23,800 nucleotides of DNA from a virus. Numbering within the stretch: the first letter of the stretch is position 1; the number at the start of each line of letters is the position of its first letter. Below are positions 1,618-13,907 of the stretch, in pieces. The notes beneath the pieces are model-generated. The model was not told where the DNA came from, did not search any database, and saw only the letters and a list, made by a program, of their open reading frames with translations. The stretch is taken from IMG/VR virus record IMGVR_UViG_3300047557_003513, positions 1 to 23,800 of that record; one strand, given 5' to 3'. Made by a program: the position numbers and the translations under genes.

Positions 1618-1646
1618 TTGTGCCGAGAGTCCCATCGTGGTATACT
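1618..1646 (+). promoter_or_regulatory. extended -10 promoter P2
   Basis: TTGTGC (1618-1623), 17-bp spacer, TGG then TATACT (1641-1646), followed by AGAGTCT. It shares the -35 variant TTGTGC and the initial transcribed sequence with promoter P3 (4174-4202). It drives the gene at 1694. Confidence 0.75.
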
Positions 1647-1654
1647 AGAGTCTT

Positions 1655-1693: not shown

Positions 1694-2029
1694 ATGAACC
1701 AAGCCACCAATCAAGCCATCAGCCTCATGCCCAAAACCGTTCCTGGCGTCCTGGTCCAGATCGGTTACAGCGCGCACCTGCTGGTGCCGTCCAGCGTCGT
1801 CGGTACCCTCGTCAAGATCCTCGAACAGGCTGCCCTGGTTCAGGAGAATCGGATCCGCGAAATCGGCGAACTGCTGGTCCTCCAGTCCGGCGACGGATTC
1901 AAGATGAAGCTCGGCACCTTTCATGTCCACACGCAGGAGCAGTACGAGGAATTCCGTCGGCTCGAGGACGTGAAGAGAGAAGCCGAGAAGAAAGCCGCTG
2001 CCGCTGAAGCCAACAACGACGTCGATTGA
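1694..2029 (+). CDS. hypothetical early phage protein, charged C-terminus
   Basis: A 111-aa protein that I do not recognise. AAGGAGAG stands 5-7 nt before the ATG, and the gene is the first behind promoter P2 and its leader hairpin. The middle (PGVLVQIGYSAHLLVPSSVV) looks like beta strands. Residues about 80-108 (EQYEEFRRLEDVKREAEKKA) are a strongly charged probable helix or coiled coil. No catalytic motif, signal peptide or membrane segment is visible. A 10-bp-stem hairpin follows the stop. Confidence 0.8.
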   Translation: MNQATNQAISLMPKTVPGVLVQIGYSAHLLVPSSVVGTLVKILEQAALVQENRIREIGELLVLQSGDGFKMKLGTFHVHTQEQYEEFRRLEDVKREAEKKAAAAEANNDVD

Positions 2030-2041
2030 TCGCCCACCATC

Positions 2042-2070
2042 TGGCCCCGCCACCAGCACCGGCGGGGCCA
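2042..2070 (+). terminator. strong intergenic hairpin
   Basis: TGGCCCCGCC (2042-2051) and GGCGGGGCCA (2061-2070) form a perfect 10-bp GC-rich stem with a 9-nt loop. No T tract follows, so it may attenuate transcription, protect the upstream mRNA end, or control entry to the Cys-rich genes rather than fully terminate. Confidence 0.5.
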
Positions 2071-2086
2071 CCACCGAGGAACAAAC

Positions 2087-2428
2087 ATGGATCGCTACTA
2101 TTCCGACACTACGCCTAAGGGCAATTCGGCCATCTCCACGGTCAGCAAGGACCACGCTGACCAGATCGCGCTGGCCATGGACGACGCAGGTTGCGTCAAT
2201 TGCTACCAGTGCTCGTTTTGCGTCCGCTGCGTGGCTTGCTATGACTGCCACAACTGCGAAGATTGCGTCAACTGCGCTAACTGCAAGCACTGTACTCAAT
2301 GCGTCAACTCGGCGATGTGCGATAATTGCGTCAGTTGCGTTTGCTGCTCAGCGTGTGACGACTGCTCGTATTGCGTCAATAGCGCAGACGTCACTGATCT
2401 CGCCAACGTGCGCAACGTGACGAAATGA
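2087..2428 (+). CDS. Cys-triplet repeat protein 1
   Basis: A 113-aa protein. After a polar N-terminus that ends in MDDAGCVNC, residues about 37-100 are 21 consecutive triplets of the form C-x-x, 20 of them starting with Cys (for example CVNCYQCSFCVRCVACYDC). The second gene of this type, at 2703, has the same lead-in (MDDNGCVNC), so they are paralogs. The repeat is more diverse here than in the second copy, both in residues and codons, suggesting older divergence. Regular period-3 Cys could form a disulfide-laced or metal-loaded solenoid or a polyproline-II-like rod; no family is recognised. GAGGAAC precedes the ATG. The stop overlaps the next start (ATGA). Confidence 0.85.
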   Translation: MDRYYSDTTPKGNSAISTVSKDHADQIALAMDDAGCVNCYQCSFCVRCVACYDCHNCEDCVNCANCKHCTQCVNSAMCDNCVSCVCCSACDDCSYCVNSADVTDLANVRNVTK

Positions 2429-2514
2429 GCAGAGCGGCGAGCGTACGCAGGCTTCTCGTCATCTGCCTGCTTTCCTGGGCCATCATCGCCATTATCATAG
2501 GGGCAATAATATGA
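2425..2514 (+). CDS. 29-aa single-span membrane microprotein
   Basis: The frame MSRAASVRRLLVICLLSWAI continues with Ile/Ala/Gly and stops at 2514. It has a short basic N-terminus and then about 20 hydrophobic residues, a typical small transmembrane helix with positive-inside orientation. Its ATG overlaps the stop of the Cys-rich gene (ATGA at 2425-2428), and its own stop overlaps the next start (ATGA at 2511-2514). Translational coupling on both sides is the main argument that it is real. Function unknown. Confidence 0.6.
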   Translation: MSRAASVRRLLVICLLSWAIIAIIIGAII

Positions 2515-2693
2515 AACACGTACTGACTGCCTACCTGGTCGTCTATGACGAGCACGGAGCCATCATCCATACCGGCGACTCTGGCGGGGAGGTTCCGCAA
2601 TCCGTCATGGATCGCGCCAAGACCGTGACCACGATCGTTGTGAAGACCGTCCTTGACAGCCACGGTGAGGTTGTCTCGGCCAAACTGTTGTAG
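2511..2693 (+). CDS. small hypothetical protein
   Basis: A 60-aa protein of unknown function, translationally coupled to the membrane microprotein by an ATGA overlap and placed between the two Cys-triplet genes. It looks like a compact alpha/beta fold with alternating hydrophobics (HVLTAYLVVYDEHG, TTIVVKTVLDSHGEVVSAKL). It contains no Cys, so it is not part of the repeat family. The four genes 2087-3440 form one tight cluster. Confidence 0.75.
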   Translation: MKHVLTAYLVVYDEHGAIIHTGDSGGEVPQSVMDRAKTVTTIVVKTVLDSHGEVVSAKLL

Positions 2694-2702
2694 GAGAGGA
2701 AC

Positions 2703-3440
2703 ATGTACACGTTTGAGACGGAAAAGAGGAACGTTGCGACCAGCATCATCAGTCAGCATGACGCCGAGTCCAAAGCCCAGAACATGGACGACAACGGCTG
2801 CGTGAACTGCACGAACTGCGCGGGCTGCACGGACTGCACGGGCTGCACGGGCTGCACGGGCTGCACGAACTGCGCGAGTTGTGTGAACTGTACGGACTGC
2901 ACGAACTGCACGTATTGCACGAACTGCGCGGGCTGCACGAACTGCACGAACTGCACGAACTGCACGGACTGCACGAACTGCGCGGGCTGCACGGACTGTA
3001 TGCACTGCGCGGACTGCACGTATTGCACGAACTGTATGCACTGCACGGACTGCACGGACTGCACGGACTGCACGGACTGCACGGACTGCACGGGCTGCAC
3101 GGGCTGCACGTACTGCGCGAACTGCACGCGCTGCGCGAACTGCACGCACTGCAGGTATTGCACGGGCTGCAGGTATTGCATGAACTGGGGGGGAGGGGCG
3201 GTGAGGGATCTCATTTGCATCAACGCAACCCCTTGGACCATTGCCATTTCCGCCACTCACGCTCAGGTTGGTTGTGTTAACATGAGTCACGGGTGGTGGT
3301 TAGCGGCAACTGACGAAGACATATGGAACAAATCGAGATCGTCAGTCCCCGAGATCGTCAATTACCGCAAAAAGTACGGCCCCCTGATCAAGTTCTTGAT
3401 CGCAGCCATGAAGGAGAAGTCAAATGACCAAGAGAACTGA
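2703..3440 (+). CDS. Cys-triplet repeat protein 2 with C-terminal domain
   Basis: A 245-aa protein. After about 32 N-terminal residues come 43 uninterrupted Cys-x-x triplets (residues about 33-161), mostly CT[N/D/G], ending near [11 protein letters not shown] separate C-terminal part (about 165-245) contains [13 protein letters not shown] and a basic helix. The DNA is an almost pure 9-nt/18-nt tandem repeat (TGCACGGAC, TGCACGAAC), which suggests expansion by slippage or recombination. The N-terminus (MDDNGCVNC) matches the gene at 2087. AGGAGAGGAAC precedes the ATG. Possible roles are metal or redox binding or a rigid spacer; I know no named family that fits. The last codons overlap the next gene at 3424. 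Confidence 0.85.
2799..3183 (+). repeat. TGC-ACG-RRC tandem repeat
   Basis: A 9-bp-period repeat encoding Cys-Thr-x, running about 385 bp with few interruptions. It is the DNA basis of the Cys-triplet domain and probably length-variable between related phages. Confidence 0.8.
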
Positions 3441-3642
3441 AATTCTCCAGCAGGTGCTGGACCTTACCAACAAGGCCGGGAGCGACGCTCGGGTGACCCA
3501 CATCCGGCTGACCAGGGTCAAAGGGTTCAAGAAGAACATCCTGCTCCAGCTCGCTGCCCGACATCACTACAACGTGGCTAGGGTCAATTGCGAGATCGCC
3601 GTCTTCCTCGAATCACTTTTGCACAAGGAGAACCGTAAATGA
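3424..3642 (+). CDS. small basic hypothetical protein
   Basis: A 72-aa basic protein, unrecognised. AAGGAG stands before its ATG inside the end of the Cys-triplet gene, and its stop overlaps the next start by 4 nt (ATGA at 3639). It has many Lys/Arg (HIRLTRVKGFKKNI, LLHKENRK) and predicted helices, so nucleic-acid binding is possible but not shown. Confidence 0.75.
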   Translation: MTKRTEILQQVLDLTNKAGSDARVTHIRLTRVKGFKKNILLQLAARHHYNVARVNCEIAVFLESLLHKENRK

Positions 3643-4133
3643 GCACCCAAATCGATCACACGGTAGCGTCGCTCGTCGGCAGCGCTGCCTCAAACATCCT
3701 CGCGGCCATCGTCGCGAAGACCGGAATCAACGTTCCCAGACCGGCTGTCATCGATCACATCGTGGCCCTGTATGACCGGCTGGTCAATGAATACGTCGAC
3801 GACGAAACCGGCTGGGAACAGAGGCCGATGCCCGGCCAGTACGACATCTACCTCGAGATTCGGCGCGAGTCCGGTACGGTGACCGCTTACGATCTGGTCC
3901 GGCGCGGTCTGGCCGTCGAAGATTTCACCGACGGGGTGGAATTCAACAAGCACAACATGCGGGTAGCCGAATCCAGGATGCGTACGGCACCGCAGGGGTG
4001 CATGTTGAAGGAGTGCTCTTCCTGCGGCCAGCTCAAGGACAGGGCCAAGTTCCCCAAGGCCGGCGGCTCGAAGTGCAAGACGTGCGTCGATCGTTCCACT
4101 CGGTCCAACCGCAAGCAACGCGAATCAATCTGA
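3639..4133 (+). CDS. hypothetical protein with C-terminal zinc finger
   Basis: A 164-aa protein. The N-terminal two thirds are unrecognised. Residues about 124-151 form a Cys4 zinc-finger motif: CSSCG, then KFPKAGGSKCKTC. This C-x2-C...C-x2-C arrangement is common beside HNH endonucleases in phages, but no HNH catalytic motif is visible here, so it may be a DNA-binding or endonuclease-accessory protein. The ATG overlaps the stop of the preceding gene. It closes the P2-driven block; the next promoter begins about 40 nt downstream. Confidence 0.8.
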   Translation: MSTQIDHTVASLVGSAASNILAAIVAKTGINVPRPAVIDHIVALYDRLVNEYVDDETGWEQRPMPGQYDIYLEIRRESGTVTAYDLVRRGLAVEDFTDGVEFNKHNMRVAESRMRTAPQGCMLKECSSCGQLKDRAKFPKAGGSKCKTCVDRSTRSNRKQRESI

Positions 4134-4173: not shown

Positions 4174-4202
4174 TTGTGCCCGGCTCCCGGGTGTGGTATA
4201 AT
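4174..4202 (+). promoter_or_regulatory. extended -10 promoter P3
   Basis: TTGTGC (4174-4179), 17-bp spacer, TGG then TATAAT (4197-4202), followed by AGAGTCT. The -10 is perfect consensus. It drives the gene at 4263 and probably the helicase beyond. Confidence 0.8.
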
Positions 4203-4218
4203 AGAGTCTCATAGCAGG

Positions 4219-6437: not shown

Positions 6438-6473
6438 TTGATACTATGCACGAGCCCGTAGCTGTGGTATACT
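6438..6473 (+). promoter_or_regulatory. promoter P4 with shared upstream 13-mer
   Basis: TATGCA (6445-6450), 17-bp spacer, TGG then TATACT (6468-6473), followed by AGAGT. The preceding 13-mer TTGATACTATGCA (6438-6450) is repeated exactly before promoter P5 (11978-11990). The weak -35 is offset by the extended -10; the conserved 13-mer may be an activator or phage-factor site. Confidence 0.7.
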
Positions 6474-6500
6474 AGAGTTTTTGACGTAGGAGAGGACGAC

Positions 6501-7941: not shown

Positions 7942-7959
7942 ATTTCCACGGGGGTGGTT

Positions 7960-9774
7960 ATGAGACTTGATTCTTGCCCTGTCATAGGGTTCGATACAGA
8001 GACTACCGGCCTGCGTTATATGGTCGATCGCGTGTTCGGGTTCAGCATCGCTGCCCCGGATGGTACCAAAGAATACCACGACATACGCCAGAATCCGGGG
8101 GCGATCGACTGGTTCAACGACGAGATGAGCCGATTTACCGGCACCATCGTTTGCCATAACGCTAGCTTTGACTACCGGATGGCGAAATCCACAGGGTTGT
8201 ATCTCCCGCTGTCTCAGGTTGATGACACAGCGGTGAGGGCCTGCCTGCTCAACGAGCACGAGCACTCTTTTTCCCTGGAATCTCTCTCCGCGAAATACCT
8301 GAAGCAGGGCAAGGAGGACATCTATCCTGAGTTGGCGAAGCTGTTTGGCGGAAGGGCCACTCGGTCTGTGCAGATGCCAAACATCCACAGGGCTCCCCCC
8401 GAGATGGTTGCACAATACGCTACCACGGATGCCCTGCTGGCCCTGCGCCTGTACGAGTGGCAGGAAGAGGAGATCAAACATCAGGGGATCGAGCGGATCG
8501 TTCAGTTCGAGCGGAGGGTCATGAAGCCCCTGATTGAGGCGGAGGGCAGAGGCATCCGGGTGGATGCCGATCGGGCCATCCGGGCCATGGAAGAGCTGAC
8601 GGTGAAAATAGATCGGTCGGAGAAGGAACTTTACTCTCTCATAGGCCGGCAGGTTAATGTTAACAGCCCAAAGCAGATCAAGGAGTTGTTCGGGGCTAAG
8701 AAGACAGATAACGGGTGGATCGCGGACAACGGGGCCAGCCTGCCATCAACGAATTCCGGGGGACCGTCCCTCGACGCGCTGGTGCTCAAGGCCATGGCTT
8801 GGGATAAACGAGCCGAGCTGATCCTATTAATCCGCTCTATGATCAAGACCCGCGACACCTTTCTTGGTGGCCATGTCTTGGGCCACATGGTGGGCGACCG
8901 GGTGTATCCCCGGATAAATCAGAACAAGAGCGACGAGGGCGGTACTGGGTCCGGCAGGCTGTCATACGTCGATCCGGCACTCCAACAGATCCCGGCCAGG
9001 AACAAAGAGGTCGCAGCGATCGTCAAGCCGGTGTTCCTGCCCGAGAGGGGGTGCCGATGGGCGTCGCTGGATCAGCACAGCTTCGAGGTCAGGGTATTCG
9101 CCCATCTGGTGAACAACCCGTCGATTATCGGCGCGTACCACAAGGACGAGCGGCTGGATTTCCATTCGTTCGTGGCCAGTCTGACCGGTCTGGTGCGGAA
9201 TGCCACCTACAGCGGCCAGCCCAACGCCAAGCAACTCAATCTGTCCGCCATCTTTAACAGCGGGAATGGTGCGATTGCGGAGCAGATGGGCATGCCCTGG
9301 GAATGGTCGTCATTCAGAGCAAAAGACGGCAAGGAGATCACCTACAAGAAGGCCGGTGAAGAAGCGATGGCGGTGATCGAGGAGTACCACAGGAGGGTTC
9401 CGGGGGTCAAAGAACTGGCCGACAAGGCCAAGAAGATCGCGGAGCAGTACGGGTATGTCCAAACCAAATATGGCCGCAGGATCAGGTTCCCGAACAAGTA
9501 CAAGACGTACAAGGCATCCGGCCTGACCATTCAGGCGACGTCAGCTGACATCAACAAAGAGATGTGGTTGGTGGCAGCGGACGAAGCCTCATACAGCGGA
9601 TGCCGGATGATCATGAACACGCATGATTCGTATGAGATCAACGTGCCGGAGGGCGAGGATCCAAAGGCTATGAGGGATAGGTTGCAGGAGTCCCTCAGGA
9701 GCAGGGTTCCGTGGTTTAGGGTGCCCTTGGTGCTGGACCTCAAGGGCGTAGGCGACAATTTTTGGGCCAAGTGA
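7960..9774 (+). CDS. dpoZ: family A DNA polymerase, DpoZ-like
   Basis: A 604-aa PolA-type polymerase. I prefer ATG 7960 (GGGGGTGG upstream) to GTG 7954. The 3'-5' exonuclease motifs are intact: FDTETTGL (about 12-19), CHNASFDYR (about 65) and YATTDALLALRLYEW (about 152). Polymerase motif A reads LDQHSFEVRVFAHL (about 370), motif B lies in RNATYSGQPNAKQLNLSAIF (about 412-432) and motif C is MNTHDSYEI (about 553). Motif A (usually DYSQIELR) and motif C (usually HDE) diverge from textbook PolA, as expected of a specialised phage clade. DpoZ enzymes of Z-genome phages copy 2-aminoadenine in preference to adenine. That assignment rests on the neighbouring purZ-mazZ-datZ genes. The stop overlaps the primase start. 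Confidence 0.9.
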   Translation: MRLDSCPVIGFDTETTGLRYMVDRVFGFSIAAPDGTKEYHDIRQNPGAIDWFNDEMSRFTGTIVCHNASFDYRMAKSTGLYLPLSQVDDTAVRACLLNEHEHSFSLESLSAKYLKQGKEDIYPELAKLFGGRATRSVQMPNIHRAPPEMVAQYATTDALLALRLYEWQEEEIKHQGIERIVQFERRVMKPLIEAEGRGIRVDADRAIRAMEELTVKIDRSEKELYSLIGRQVNVNSPKQIKELFGAKKTDNGWIADNGASLPSTNSGGPSLDALVLKAMAWDKRAELILLIRSMIKTRDTFLGGHVLGHMVGDRVYPRINQNKSDEGGTGSGRLSYVDPALQQIPARNKEVAAIVKPVFLPERGCRWASLDQHSFEVRVFAHLVNNPSIIGAYHKDERLDFHSFVASLTGLVRNATYSGQPNAKQLNLSAIFNSGNGAIAEQMGMPWEWSSFRAKDGKEITYKKAGEEAMAVIEEYHRRVPGVKELADKAKKIAEQYGYVQTKYGRRIRFPNKYKTYKASGLTIQATSADINKEMWLVAADEASYSGCRMIMNTHDSYEINVPEGEDPKAMRDRLQESLRSRVPWFRVPLVLDLKGVGDNFWAK

Positions 9775-12062: not shown

Positions 12063-13100
12063 ATGAGTAAGAGAGTAGATGTGGTGGTTGATTTGCAGTT
12101 CGGCAGCACGGGCAAGGGCTTGCTGTCGGCCTATCTTTCCACCAGGGAGCGCTACACGGGGGCCATCTCTGTCAACATGCCCAATGCCGGCCACACGGCG
12201 TACGACTTCGGGGGCAACAAGTTCGTGCACAAGGTCCTGCCGTCCGGCCTGTTCAGCCCGTATCTGGAGTTCATCGGCATCGGCCCCGGATCGGTGTTCA
12301 GCATCGACCGTCTGGCCAAGGAATGGGCCAACGTGAAAGATAAGATTCGGGGCGAGTTCCAGTTGATGATCCATGAGGCGGCTGGGGTTCTTACCGAGGG
12401 GCACGCCGAGATTGAGAGGGCGTCGCTGGGGCGGATCGCCAGCACCATGCAGGGGTCGGGGGCCGCCCTGTGCGACAAGGTCATGAGGAATCCGGGGGCG
12501 ATCGCCAGAGACAACGAGTTCGCCATTTTGGCAAAGGTTCCTGACGCCAGGATTCTTACGAGCCAGCAATGGACGTCGCTCATTCACCATTCGACGGGAC
12601 CGATTCTGGTCGAGGGCAGCCAGGGCTATTCCCTGGGGCTGTCGGCGGGGTTCTACCCGCACTGCACCAGCCGGGACTGCACCCCGGCCAGGGTGCTGGC
12701 CGATGCGAACGTGCCCCTGCAGATGGTCCGTCACGTGCACGGGTCCTGCAGGGTTCACCCGATCCGGGTAGGGAACGTCCCCGAGGGCACCAGCGGGGGT
12801 TGGTATAAGGACCAACAGGAGATCTGTTTCGGGACCCTTGGCGTTGCCCCCGAGACGACCACCGTTACCGGCAGGGTTCGCAGGGTGGCGACGTTCTCCA
12901 AGATCCAGATCCAAGAAGCCATTCTGGCCGCGATGCCGGACCACATCTTCCTGAACTTCTTCCAGTACAACAAGGAACACTCGAACGCGGCGTTGGCCGA
13001 TATCGTGTCGGTCTATCTCGCCAATCAATTGCCTCTTCCAAGGGTCTACATCGGCGAAGGCCCCATGCTTTACAACGTCAAGCAGCGGAACGCGCCATGA
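12063..13100 (+). CDS. purZ: PurZ, dGMP:aspartate ligase (Z-base synthesis)
   Basis: A 345-aa adenylosuccinate-synthetase homolog. PurZ ligates dGMP and aspartate to form the direct precursor of 2-aminoadenine deoxynucleotide. Direct evidence: the P-loop reads QFGSTGKG (residues 12-19), where PurA has GDEGKGK, so the catalytic Asp is replaced by Ser15 as in known PurZ proteins. Also present are NMPNAGHT (38-45), YPHCTSRDCTPARVLAD and TTVTGRVRRV, all matching the phiVC8-type PurZ that I know. The length is typical of PurZ and about 80-90 aa shorter than PurA. It heads the cluster with mazZ (4-nt overlap) and datZ, behind promoter P5. Confidence 0.95.
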   Translation: MSKRVDVVVDLQFGSTGKGLLSAYLSTRERYTGAISVNMPNAGHTAYDFGGNKFVHKVLPSGLFSPYLEFIGIGPGSVFSIDRLAKEWANVKDKIRGEFQLMIHEAAGVLTEGHAEIERASLGRIASTMQGSGAALCDKVMRNPGAIARDNEFAILAKVPDARILTSQQWTSLIHHSTGPILVEGSQGYSLGLSAGFYPHCTSRDCTPARVLADANVPLQMVRHVHGSCRVHPIRVGNVPEGTSGGWYKDQQEICFGTLGVAPETTTVTGRVRRVATFSKIQIQEAILAAMPDHIFLNFFQYNKEHSNAALADIVSVYLANQLPLPRVYIGEGPMLYNVKQRNAP

Positions 13101-13420
13101 AGTGGCCCGAGAACATAGGGATGATGCAGGGCATGGTGGTTGAGTGGATTTCGCCCCTCCTCCCTGATCGTAATCCGATGGCCACAGCCGTGAAGATGAC
13201 GGAAGAGCTGTCGGAGCTGATGGGGGCCATGCTGCATGGGGACAAGAACATTGGCGAAGAGTGCGCCGATGTCCTGATCCTCCTCCTGGACATAGCATAC
13301 CTCAACGGTGTTGATATCTCCGAAGAATTCTGGGAAAAGATGAAAATCAACCGGGGCCGAAGCTGGACCCCAAAACAAGGAGCACTGAAGCATGAAAACG
13401 CCAATCAGCAAGATGCTTGA
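13097..13420 (+). CDS. mazZ: MazZ, (d)GTP pyrophosphohydrolase
   Basis: A 107-aa all-helical MazG-fold protein (DUF550-like). The metal-binding pattern is EELSE (36-40) followed by EECAD (54-58), i.e. the ExxE...ExxD signature. It also has an N-terminal W...R.P segment. In Z-genome phages MazZ cleaves dGTP to dGMP and PPi, feeding PurZ. Its ATG overlaps the purZ stop (ATGA), and its end overlaps datZ by 29 nt, so the three are translated together. Single-domain size is normal for phage MazG-like proteins. Confidence 0.9.
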   Translation: MKWPENIGMMQGMVVEWISPLLPDRNPMATAVKMTEELSELMGAMLHGDKNIGEECADVLILLLDIAYLNGVDISEEFWEKMKINRGRSWTPKQGALKHENANQQDA

Positions 13421-13907
13421 CCTGGATTCGGTTAAACGCTGGACGATGGTGAATACGGCGGCCAGCAGCACGGTCGCTTCCCATTCCTTCAACGTGGCAG
13501 CGATAGGCATGGCCATCTGGACGAATCTGCACGTGAAGGTGGGGTACTCGGAGCGAGACGTTTGTTACCACGCCATCATGCACGACCGGATCGAAGCGTA
13601 TTCCGGGGACATAGCCACCCCGGTGAAGAGGGCCATGAGGGAGGCGGGGTTCGACGCGAACGGCAGCACTTACGGGGCTCCAGAGGAAGTTGGGCCTACG
13701 GAGCACATCTGCGCCCTGCTCAAGATCGCCGACAAGATCGAGAACTGGAACTTCATCAGGCAGTACGGGGTGGGGGACAGGGCCAGAGTGGCGAAGCGTC
13801 ACTGTCGAACCGACTTGCTCAATACCCTCAATAGCGCTGACGAGGATCTTCAGCAAGCCGCCAAAAAGGTTCTCGTCGAGATACTACGTAGGGATCCTAG
13901 TTTCTGA
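13392..13907 (+). CDS. datZ: DatZ, HD-domain dATP triphosphohydrolase
   Basis: A 171-aa HD-superfamily protein of the YfbR/DatZ type. Metal ligands are visible as SHSFNVA (His31), MHDRIEAYSGDIATPVK (His64, Asp65, Glu68) and KIADKIEN (Asp114). DatZ strips triphosphate from dATP, removing adenine from the pool so that the polymerase incorporates Z. AAGGAG precedes ATG 13392, inside the end of mazZ. The order purZ-mazZ-datZ makes the function nearly certain even though sequence alone would allow a generic 5'-nucleotidase. Confidence 0.9.
   Translation: MKTPISKMLDLDSVKRWTMVNTAASSTVASHSFNVAAIGMAIWTNLHVKVGYSERDVCYHAIMHDRIEAYSGDIATPVKRAMREAGFDANGSTYGAPEEVGPTEHICALLKIADKIENWNFIRQYGVGDRARVAKRHCRTDLLNTLNSADEDLQQAAKKVLVEILRRDPSF

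What the first reader, a model, noticed from the sequence alone, without database searches (positions are those of the whole stretch)
2087..3440. Two paralogous Cys-x-x triplet repeat proteins
One protein has 43 uninterrupted Cys-x-x triplets, the other 21 (20 starting with Cys), both introduced by MDD[A/N]GCVNC. Cysteine at every third residue over so long a stretch is very unusual. It could be a metal sponge, a redox buffer, or a new solenoid stacked by Cys ladders.
Basis: seen in the sequence. Interest (0 to 1): 0.85.

Follow-up and report, generated by a model that had tools for sequence, protein, structure and literature searches.

The report
Phage cysteine-every-third-residue solenoid proteins
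This phage carries two neighbouring genes for proteins in which every third amino acid is cysteine; they belong to a widespread, unstudied phage family that probably folds into a small spring-shaped rod with cysteines lining the inside, but what it does in the infected cell is unknown.

Summary
ORF 2703-3440 encodes 43 uninterrupted Cys-x-x triplets. ORF 2087-2428 encodes 21 triplets, 20 starting with Cys. Both have ribosome-binding sites and share an N-terminal cap.

It is neither a one-off nor an artefact. A capped scan of viral contigs gave roughly 80 related proteins. Named, mostly cultured relatives occur in Campylobacter, Vibrio and Flavobacterium phages. The frame is conserved: in Campylobacter phage orthologs, Cys positions show 168 synonymous against 37 non-synonymous differences, and the other positions 108 against 428. 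When the Cys series breaks, 21 of 23 breaks keep the period of three (Ser, Leu, Phe or Gly replaces Cys).

Best reading: a tripeptide-repeat beta-solenoid with inward cysteine ladders between exchangeable caps. One cap family also ends hexapeptide and YdcK solenoids. AlphaFold predicts the solenoid for the window protein (pLDDT about 80-87) but not for a relative (33-45), so the fold is likely, not shown.

Function is unknown. I favour an accessory early-operon protein whose variable outer face binds a target; a metal sponge or redox role is untested. A parity rule I thought I saw failed replication. Novelty: new variant of a known kind.

The parts
1637..1652 (+). promoter-like motif GTGGTATACTAGAGTC upstream of the gene cluster that contains both Cys genes; exact copy at 4193-4208, 1 mismatch at 6464-6479
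   Evidence: 4 matches with up to 3 mismatches against 0.25 expected (0 of 100 shuffles reached 4); promoter role inferred; the generic sigma-70 scan did not flag it
2076..2081 (+). Shine-Dalgarno GAGGAA of the first Cys gene
   Evidence: read from sequence
2087..2428 (+). first Cys-triplet protein (P0001, 113 aa)
   Evidence: phrog_15341 E 3.5e-10
2192..2380 (+). 21 triplets of P0001 (13 C-x-x, one S-A-M, 7 C-x-x)
2381..2425 (+). P0001 tail: triplet period continued by SAD VTD LAN VRN VTK (S/V/L/V/V in the Cys phase)
2511..2693 (+). 60-aa ORF between the two Cys genes, no family match
2692..2699 (+). Shine-Dalgarno AGGAGAGG of the second Cys gene
   Evidence: read from sequence
2703..3440 (+). 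second Cys-triplet protein (P0002, 245 aa)
   Evidence: phrog_15341 E 1.1e-18
2703..2798 (+). N-terminal cap of P0002 (predicted hairpin and helix), homologous to the P0001 N-cap and to GN-x-S...SQ..AD caps of relatives
2799..3185 (+). 43 uninterrupted Cys-x-x triplets; predicted beta-solenoid (pLDDT mostly 72-87)
3186..3437 (+). C-terminal region of P0002, similar to L002's cap (phrog_31567 in L002); low AF2 confidence (mostly below 65)

Best explanation
Both genes encode small, probably cytoplasmic accessory phage proteins of one modular family: an N-terminal cap, a tripeptide-repeat beta-solenoid in which each C-x-x triplet puts Cys into the core and x-x on the surface, and an optional C-terminal cap. 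Four triplets (12 residues) probably make one coil, as in the Tenebrio antifreeze protein, so P0002 would have about 11 coils with four internal cysteine columns. The core needs a small, hydrophobic residue, so Cys dominates but Ser, Leu, Phe or Gly can replace it in phase. Array length changes by whole triplets through tandem duplication. As for function, the surface residues vary while the scaffold is kept, which suggests an early-made binding scaffold or decoy for a host or phage macromolecule; the thiols would be structural. SHOWN: frame, period, selection on Cys, in-phase substitutions, caps shared among relatives, cluster position. PREDICTED: solenoid fold, handedness, coil length. INFERRED: binding role, early expression, cytoplasmic location.
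For: Related proteins in about 70 viral loci with C-[S/T/R/I/V/A]-[D/N/G/S/R/Y] triplets. Protein-level selection in Campylobacter phage orthologs: Cys columns 168 synonymous / 37 non-synonymous, x columns 108 / 428; 21 of 23 interruptions keep the period of three, filled by S 11, L 6, F 4, G 3. The residue in the Cys phase just after the last Cys is L/V/I/F/M/Y/W in 60% against 8-17% at the flanking positions. AF2 on P0002: repeat pLDDT mostly 72-87, beta-bridge every third residue. VIA: 1ezg Tenebrio antifreeze protein Z 7.6, rmsd 3.1, 81 of 82 residues, 82 model residues onto 82 chain residues; top rows are right-handed beta-helices. The CGCF C-cap occurs on YdcK-type (PF18836) and hexapeptide (PF00132) solenoids and on Cys-triplet proteins, and its model matches caps of phage proteins named hexapeptide, polymer-forming, pentapeptide or beta-solenoid.
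Against: Only the best of five AF2 models reached mean pLDDT 67 (others 49-59), and the repeat of a relative (L020) was not predicted (pLDDT 33-45). Foldseek gave no PDB match with E below 1e-3 and Z 7.6 is within the common range for repeats. No strong 4-triplet periodicity: lag 4 z 3.4 but lag 8 z -1.7. CGCF homology was not detectable for the window's own C-cap (hhalign probability 4.3). Nothing tests binding, expression or location. A TmAFP-like coil in nature is held by disulfides, unlikely to form in a reducing cytoplasm.
Confidence: 0.5

Rival explanations
1. Metal-binding protein (phage metallothionein-like sponge or store): the 33% Cys with CxxC spacing binds Zn, Cu(I), Cd or Fe-S along its length, and length sets capacity.
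For: Cys fraction like metallothioneins (own knowledge); CxxC is a classical metal half-site; very variable length fits a capacity function.
Against: In-phase replacement by Ser/Leu/Phe/Gly and Leu/Val/Phe in terminal Cys-phase positions; aromatic and aliphatic residues common in x positions; no Pfam metallothionein hit; strict period of three rather than mixed CxC/CxxC.
Confidence: 0.2
2. Redox protein: the Cys ladders form and break disulfides, acting as a thiol buffer or oxidation-triggered switch during infection or lysis.
For: Up to about 80 thiols per chain; TmAFP, the nearest solved sequence match (phmmer E 7e-6), is disulfide-laddered.
Against: No redox partner gene recognised next to it in the window; cytosol is reducing; in-phase hydrophobic replacements.
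Confidence: 0.12
3. DNA mimic or topoisomerase/nuclease inhibitor, like pentapeptide-repeat proteins Qnr/MfpA.
For: Mostly acidic repeats (median -0.16 charge per triplet; 10% of proteins positive); often located among replication genes.
Against: Charge weak and inconsistent (-0.57 to +0.18 per triplet); no pentapeptide Pfam hit.
Confidence: 0.12
4. Not a functional protein: a DNA tandem repeat that happens to be open in the Cys frame.
For: 9-bp tandem array in P0002; other frames also open.
Against: P0001 and the Campylobacter, Helicobacter and L171 members have diverse non-repetitive triplets; synonymous Cys codon changes; ribosome-binding sites and homologous caps.
Confidence: 0.03
5. Ice-binding (antifreeze) protein, as one deposited annotation says.
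For: Vibrio phage NVP1238A_68 is annotated 'insect antifreeze protein' through IPR016133; phmmer hit to 1ezg.
Against: The T-C-T face of TmAFP is absent (x2 is mostly D/N/G); hosts include Campylobacter phages of poultry and Helicobacter.
Confidence: 0.02

Closest known systems
PHROG phrog_15341 (unknown function)
   Same: Both window proteins match it (E 3.5e-10 and 1.1e-18), as do relatives with other caps; the match covers the Cys repeat.
   Different: It has no function; the window proteins' caps are not covered by it.
Cys-rich proteins of Campylobacter Firehammervirus phages (CP220 CPT_0032, CP21_165/166, F379_210, IBB_35, WX1)
   Same: Same C-x-x arrays (up to about 80 triplets) behind an N-cap; in named phage genomes.
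   Different: Different N-cap (DGYYVDSNNNKW), different position (between portal and DNA ligase), less repetitive DNA.
Tenebrio molitor antifreeze protein (PDB 1ezg, 1l1i)
   Same: Small side chains at every third residue point into a 12-residue right-handed coil; phmmer E 7e-6; VIA Z 7.6 over 81 residues.
   Different: Cys at only 2 of 4 inner positions, strict 12-residue TCTxSxxCxxAx, secreted and disulfide-bonded; Foldseek E only 0.78.
Pentapeptide-repeat proteins (Qnr, MfpA)
   Same: Quadrilateral beta-solenoid with equivalent short units (general knowledge).
   Different: Period five, A(D/N)Lxx; no Pfam match here.
YdcK-type and hexapeptide (LbetaH) phage solenoid proteins
   Same: Relatives of the window proteins carry the same CGCF C-terminal cap (phrog_20532 in both; Bobb, phiAGATE, phiRM10).
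   Different: Repeat sequence quite different (A-x-V-x-G-[DN]); the window protein's own C-cap is not recognisably CGCF.

Membership tests
phrog_15341 | profile match | tested here: met
   E 3.5e-10 (P0001), 1.1e-18 (P0002); the repeat drives the score
Insect (Tenebrio) antifreeze protein | 12-residue TCTxSxxCxxAx repeat with paired Thr face | tested here: not met
   every triplet has Cys; x2 is D/N/G rather than Thr
Insect (Tenebrio) antifreeze protein | right-handed 12-residue-per-coil beta-helix | tested here: inconclusive
   AF2 model aligns to 1ezg Z 7.6, rmsd 3.1, 81 residues; second AF2 model fails in repeat
Insect (Tenebrio) antifreeze protein | ice binding / thermal hysteresis | not testable with these tools
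   needs protein
Pentapeptide-repeat protein | period-5 A(D/N)Lxx repeats (Pfam match) | tested here: not met
   no Pfam hit up to E 1; period is 3
Metallothionein | metal-thiolate clusters | not testable with these tools
   needs ICP-MS/UV
Metallothionein | family profile match | tested here: not met
   no Pfam hit up to E 1
CGCF-capped phage beta-solenoids | CGCF C-terminal cap (phrog_20532) | tested here: not met
   met for relatives L020 etc. but not for the window proteins: P0001 ends without a cap, P0002's cap has hhalign probability 4.3
Beta-solenoid (general) | regular coil of stacked strands with inward residues at fixed period | tested here: inconclusive
   supported for P0002 by AF2 and in-phase substitutions; not supported by AF2 for L020

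The most novel reading that the evidence does not exclude
The array is a thiol-lined nanotube: a genetically tunable-length beta-solenoid whose four inner Cys columns hold a linear file of metal ions or reversible disulfides, i.e. a new kind of phage-encoded metal or redox device built from a three-residue unit.
Probability: 0.12. Interest if true: 0.88.

Novelty: new variant of a known kind. Interest (0 to 1): 0.62.

Why it matters
If the fold is right, this is about the smallest beta-solenoid repeat unit possible (three residues, a single amino acid type in the core), widespread in phages yet, in the papers I could search, undescribed. It is encoded in cultured laboratory phages, so structure, metal content and knock-out phenotype can be tested at once. 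Up to a third cysteine in a cytoplasmic protein is costly and chemically risky, so its persistence in phages of many hosts implies a real function in infection.

Tried and rejected
(1) Parity rule: in 9 of 9 in-phase CGCF-capped proteins the number of triplets between caps was odd; 12 further proteins gave 6 odd and 6 even, so it was chance. (2) 12-residue register from sequence: lag-4 autocorrelation z 3.4 and lag-2 z 2.9 but nothing at lag 8; weak at best. (3) A link to a PAPS-reductase-like neighbour seen in two prophage-like regions of one genome: no hit in the other loci. (4) The PDB phmmer hit to 9e5c (E 8e-23) is an alanine/threonine-rich repeat, i.e. low complexity, not homology. (5) Full-length tblastn in 'phages' found nothing, probably because low-complexity masking hides the repeat; cap-only queries found the cultured relatives. 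(6) A1 gave no searchable conserved stretch. (7) The unbiased pattern scans also pull in microsatellite-like and antisense frames, removed by requiring cap motifs. (8) No paper describing the family was found; only the CP220 and CP21 genome papers (PMC2853527, PMC4546147), whose main texts do not name these genes. (9) PDB second look with the L020 model found nothing above Z 3.4.

Full report
OBSERVATION. Two + strand ORFs, 2087-2428 (P0001, 113 aa) and 2703-3440 (P0002, 245 aa), are present as described. P0002 has 43 uninterrupted C-x-x triplets (window 2799-3185; 39 TGC, 4 TGT). P0001 has 21 triplets, 20 beginning with Cys. In 200 shuffles of the window no frame had more than 4 consecutive C-x-x. 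Both genes have strong ribosome-binding sites and share the lead-in MDD[A/N]GCVNC. In P0001 the period of three continues beyond the last Cys with S, V, L, V, V in the Cys phase. They lie in a tightly packed + strand gene cluster (1694-4133) downstream of a promoter-like motif (GTGGTATANTAGAGTC) repeated at 1637, 4193 and 6464.

NOT AN ARTEFACT. P0002's DNA is partly a 9-bp tandem array, so a repeat artefact had to be excluded. Three lines exclude it. (i) Relatives with non-repetitive DNA keep the pattern: CP21_166 has 284 aa and dozens of different triplets, and L171 and L213 likewise. (ii) AT-rich members use TGT almost throughout (L032: 29 of 29 in the longest run) and GC-rich ones TGC. In aligned Campylobacter phage orthologs, Cys columns differ 168 times synonymously and 37 times non-synonymously, while the x columns differ 108 and 428 times. 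The aligner itself favours Cys on Cys, so the synonymous count is the robust part. (iii) Caps before and after the repeat are conserved in the same frame.

FAMILY AND DISTRIBUTION. A P0002 search of viral contigs gave 24 loci; L001 is identical to the window protein over its whole length. After removing spurious frames by cap motifs there were roughly 80 proteins in about 70 loci. Several N-caps and C-caps occur in different combinations. L002 repeats the window's arrangement: a short uncapped copy plus a longer copy with the same C-cap type. Cap-only tblastn found named phages: 17 Campylobacter phage records, Vibrio phage 1.238.A/B, Flavobacterium phage FL-1 and a Helicobacter prophage. In Campylobacter phages the main copy sits between portal gp20 and DNA ligase, with lengths of 55-284 aa. 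Copies are broken in some isolates: an in-frame stop in CPt10 and CP20, a frame change in CJLB-14, a truncated array in CJLB-12. The gene is therefore accessory. PHROG 15341 was absent from 14 control genomes and present in the five genomes reached from loci; in one of these both copies lie in prophage-like regions with single-strand-binding-protein-like or terminase-like genes (judged by eye).

STRUCTURE. Interruptions keep the period of three in 21 of 23 cases, with Ser, Leu, Phe or Gly in the Cys position (several examples are orthologous, so not all are independent). The residue in Cys phase directly after the array is hydrophobic in 60%, against 8-17% at the flanking positions. This is what an inward-facing position looks like. 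AF2 on P0002 with an alignment of 15 sequences gave repeat pLDDT mostly 72-87 with a beta-bridge every third residue. The VIA alignment shows right-handed beta-helices and the Tenebrio antifreeze protein 1ezg (Z 7.6, 82 residues onto 82), implying about 12 residues, four triplets, per coil. Caveats: only one of five AF2 models was good, Foldseek alone found no significant PDB match, and the L020 model has an unresolved repeat. In BFVD the best hits of the P0002 model are a Cys-rich protein of a giant virus (E 2.5e-10) and the IBB_35 family member. In relatives, the CGCF cap is confidently modelled and is shared with hexapeptide, YdcK and pentapeptide-type phage proteins, so the Cys array occupies the slot of a beta-solenoid. 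For the window's own C-cap this relation could not be shown.

MECHANISM. I commit to a structural role of the cysteines (small, hydrophobic core residue) in a scaffold whose outer x-x residues (S/T/R/I/V/A and D/N/G/S/R/Y) and length evolve quickly, consistent with binding or decoy work during early infection. The binding role is inference. Metal or redox use remains open (about 0.2 and 0.12). Repeats are mildly acidic (median -0.16 per triplet), too inconsistent for a general DNA mimic. The antifreeze label in one record fails on the Thr face.

NOVELTY. The family exists in databases as unknown, 'cysteine rich' or misnamed proteins, and my literature searches found no description (open-access subset only). 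I rate it a new variant of a known kind (beta-solenoid with a three-residue, Cys-core unit).

Noticed in passing
12063-13907 (and 7954-9774): Genes typical of 2-aminoadenine (Z) DNA phages: PurZ-like adenylosuccinate synthetase (phrog_1211, E 2.7e-72), MazG-like pyrophosphohydrolase, DatZ-like dATP triphosphohydrolase (phrog_7076), with a family A DNA polymerase.
   Followed up: partly
L152 (Flavobacterium phage FL-1, KY421186.2), 1897-2713: The Cys-triplet gene is annotated in the wrong frame (APZ82901.1, a VAPIAPVAP repeat); its C-terminal WHTC cap is read in another frame in the deposited sequence.
   Followed up: partly
1637-1652, 4193-4208, 6464-6479: Repeated promoter-like motif GTGGTATANTAGAGTC, 4 matches against 0.25 expected; two copies are followed by GGGGGCGATC-type sequence.
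   Followed up: partly
791-903: Perfect 36-bp tandem repeat (3.1 copies) encoding an acidic DE/S-rich 12-residue repeat inside ORF 539-1273.
   Followed up: no
L113 731-1807 (-): A second Cys-containing solenoid protein (SFGxxC hexapeptide repeat, PF00132) near the Cys-triplet gene in the same viral locus, ending in a CGCF-type cap (phrog_20532).
   Followed up: partly
BFVD A0A5B8IEK9 (Mimiviridae sp. ChoanoV1): A giant-virus protein labelled TNFR-Cys is the best structural match of the P0002 model (E 2.5e-10, 35% identity): possible C-x-x proteins outside phages.
   Followed up: no
L283 1501-1926 (IBB_35): A second, non-syntenic Cys-triplet copy in a Campylobacter phage; a BFVD entry of this phage that matches the P0002 model carries the misleading name Caib/baif family protein.
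   Followed up: partly
3639-4133: Protein whose C-terminus resembles endonuclease VII / HNH zinc-binding regions (phrog_1035 E 5e-5), downstream of the Cys genes in the same cluster.
   Followed up: no
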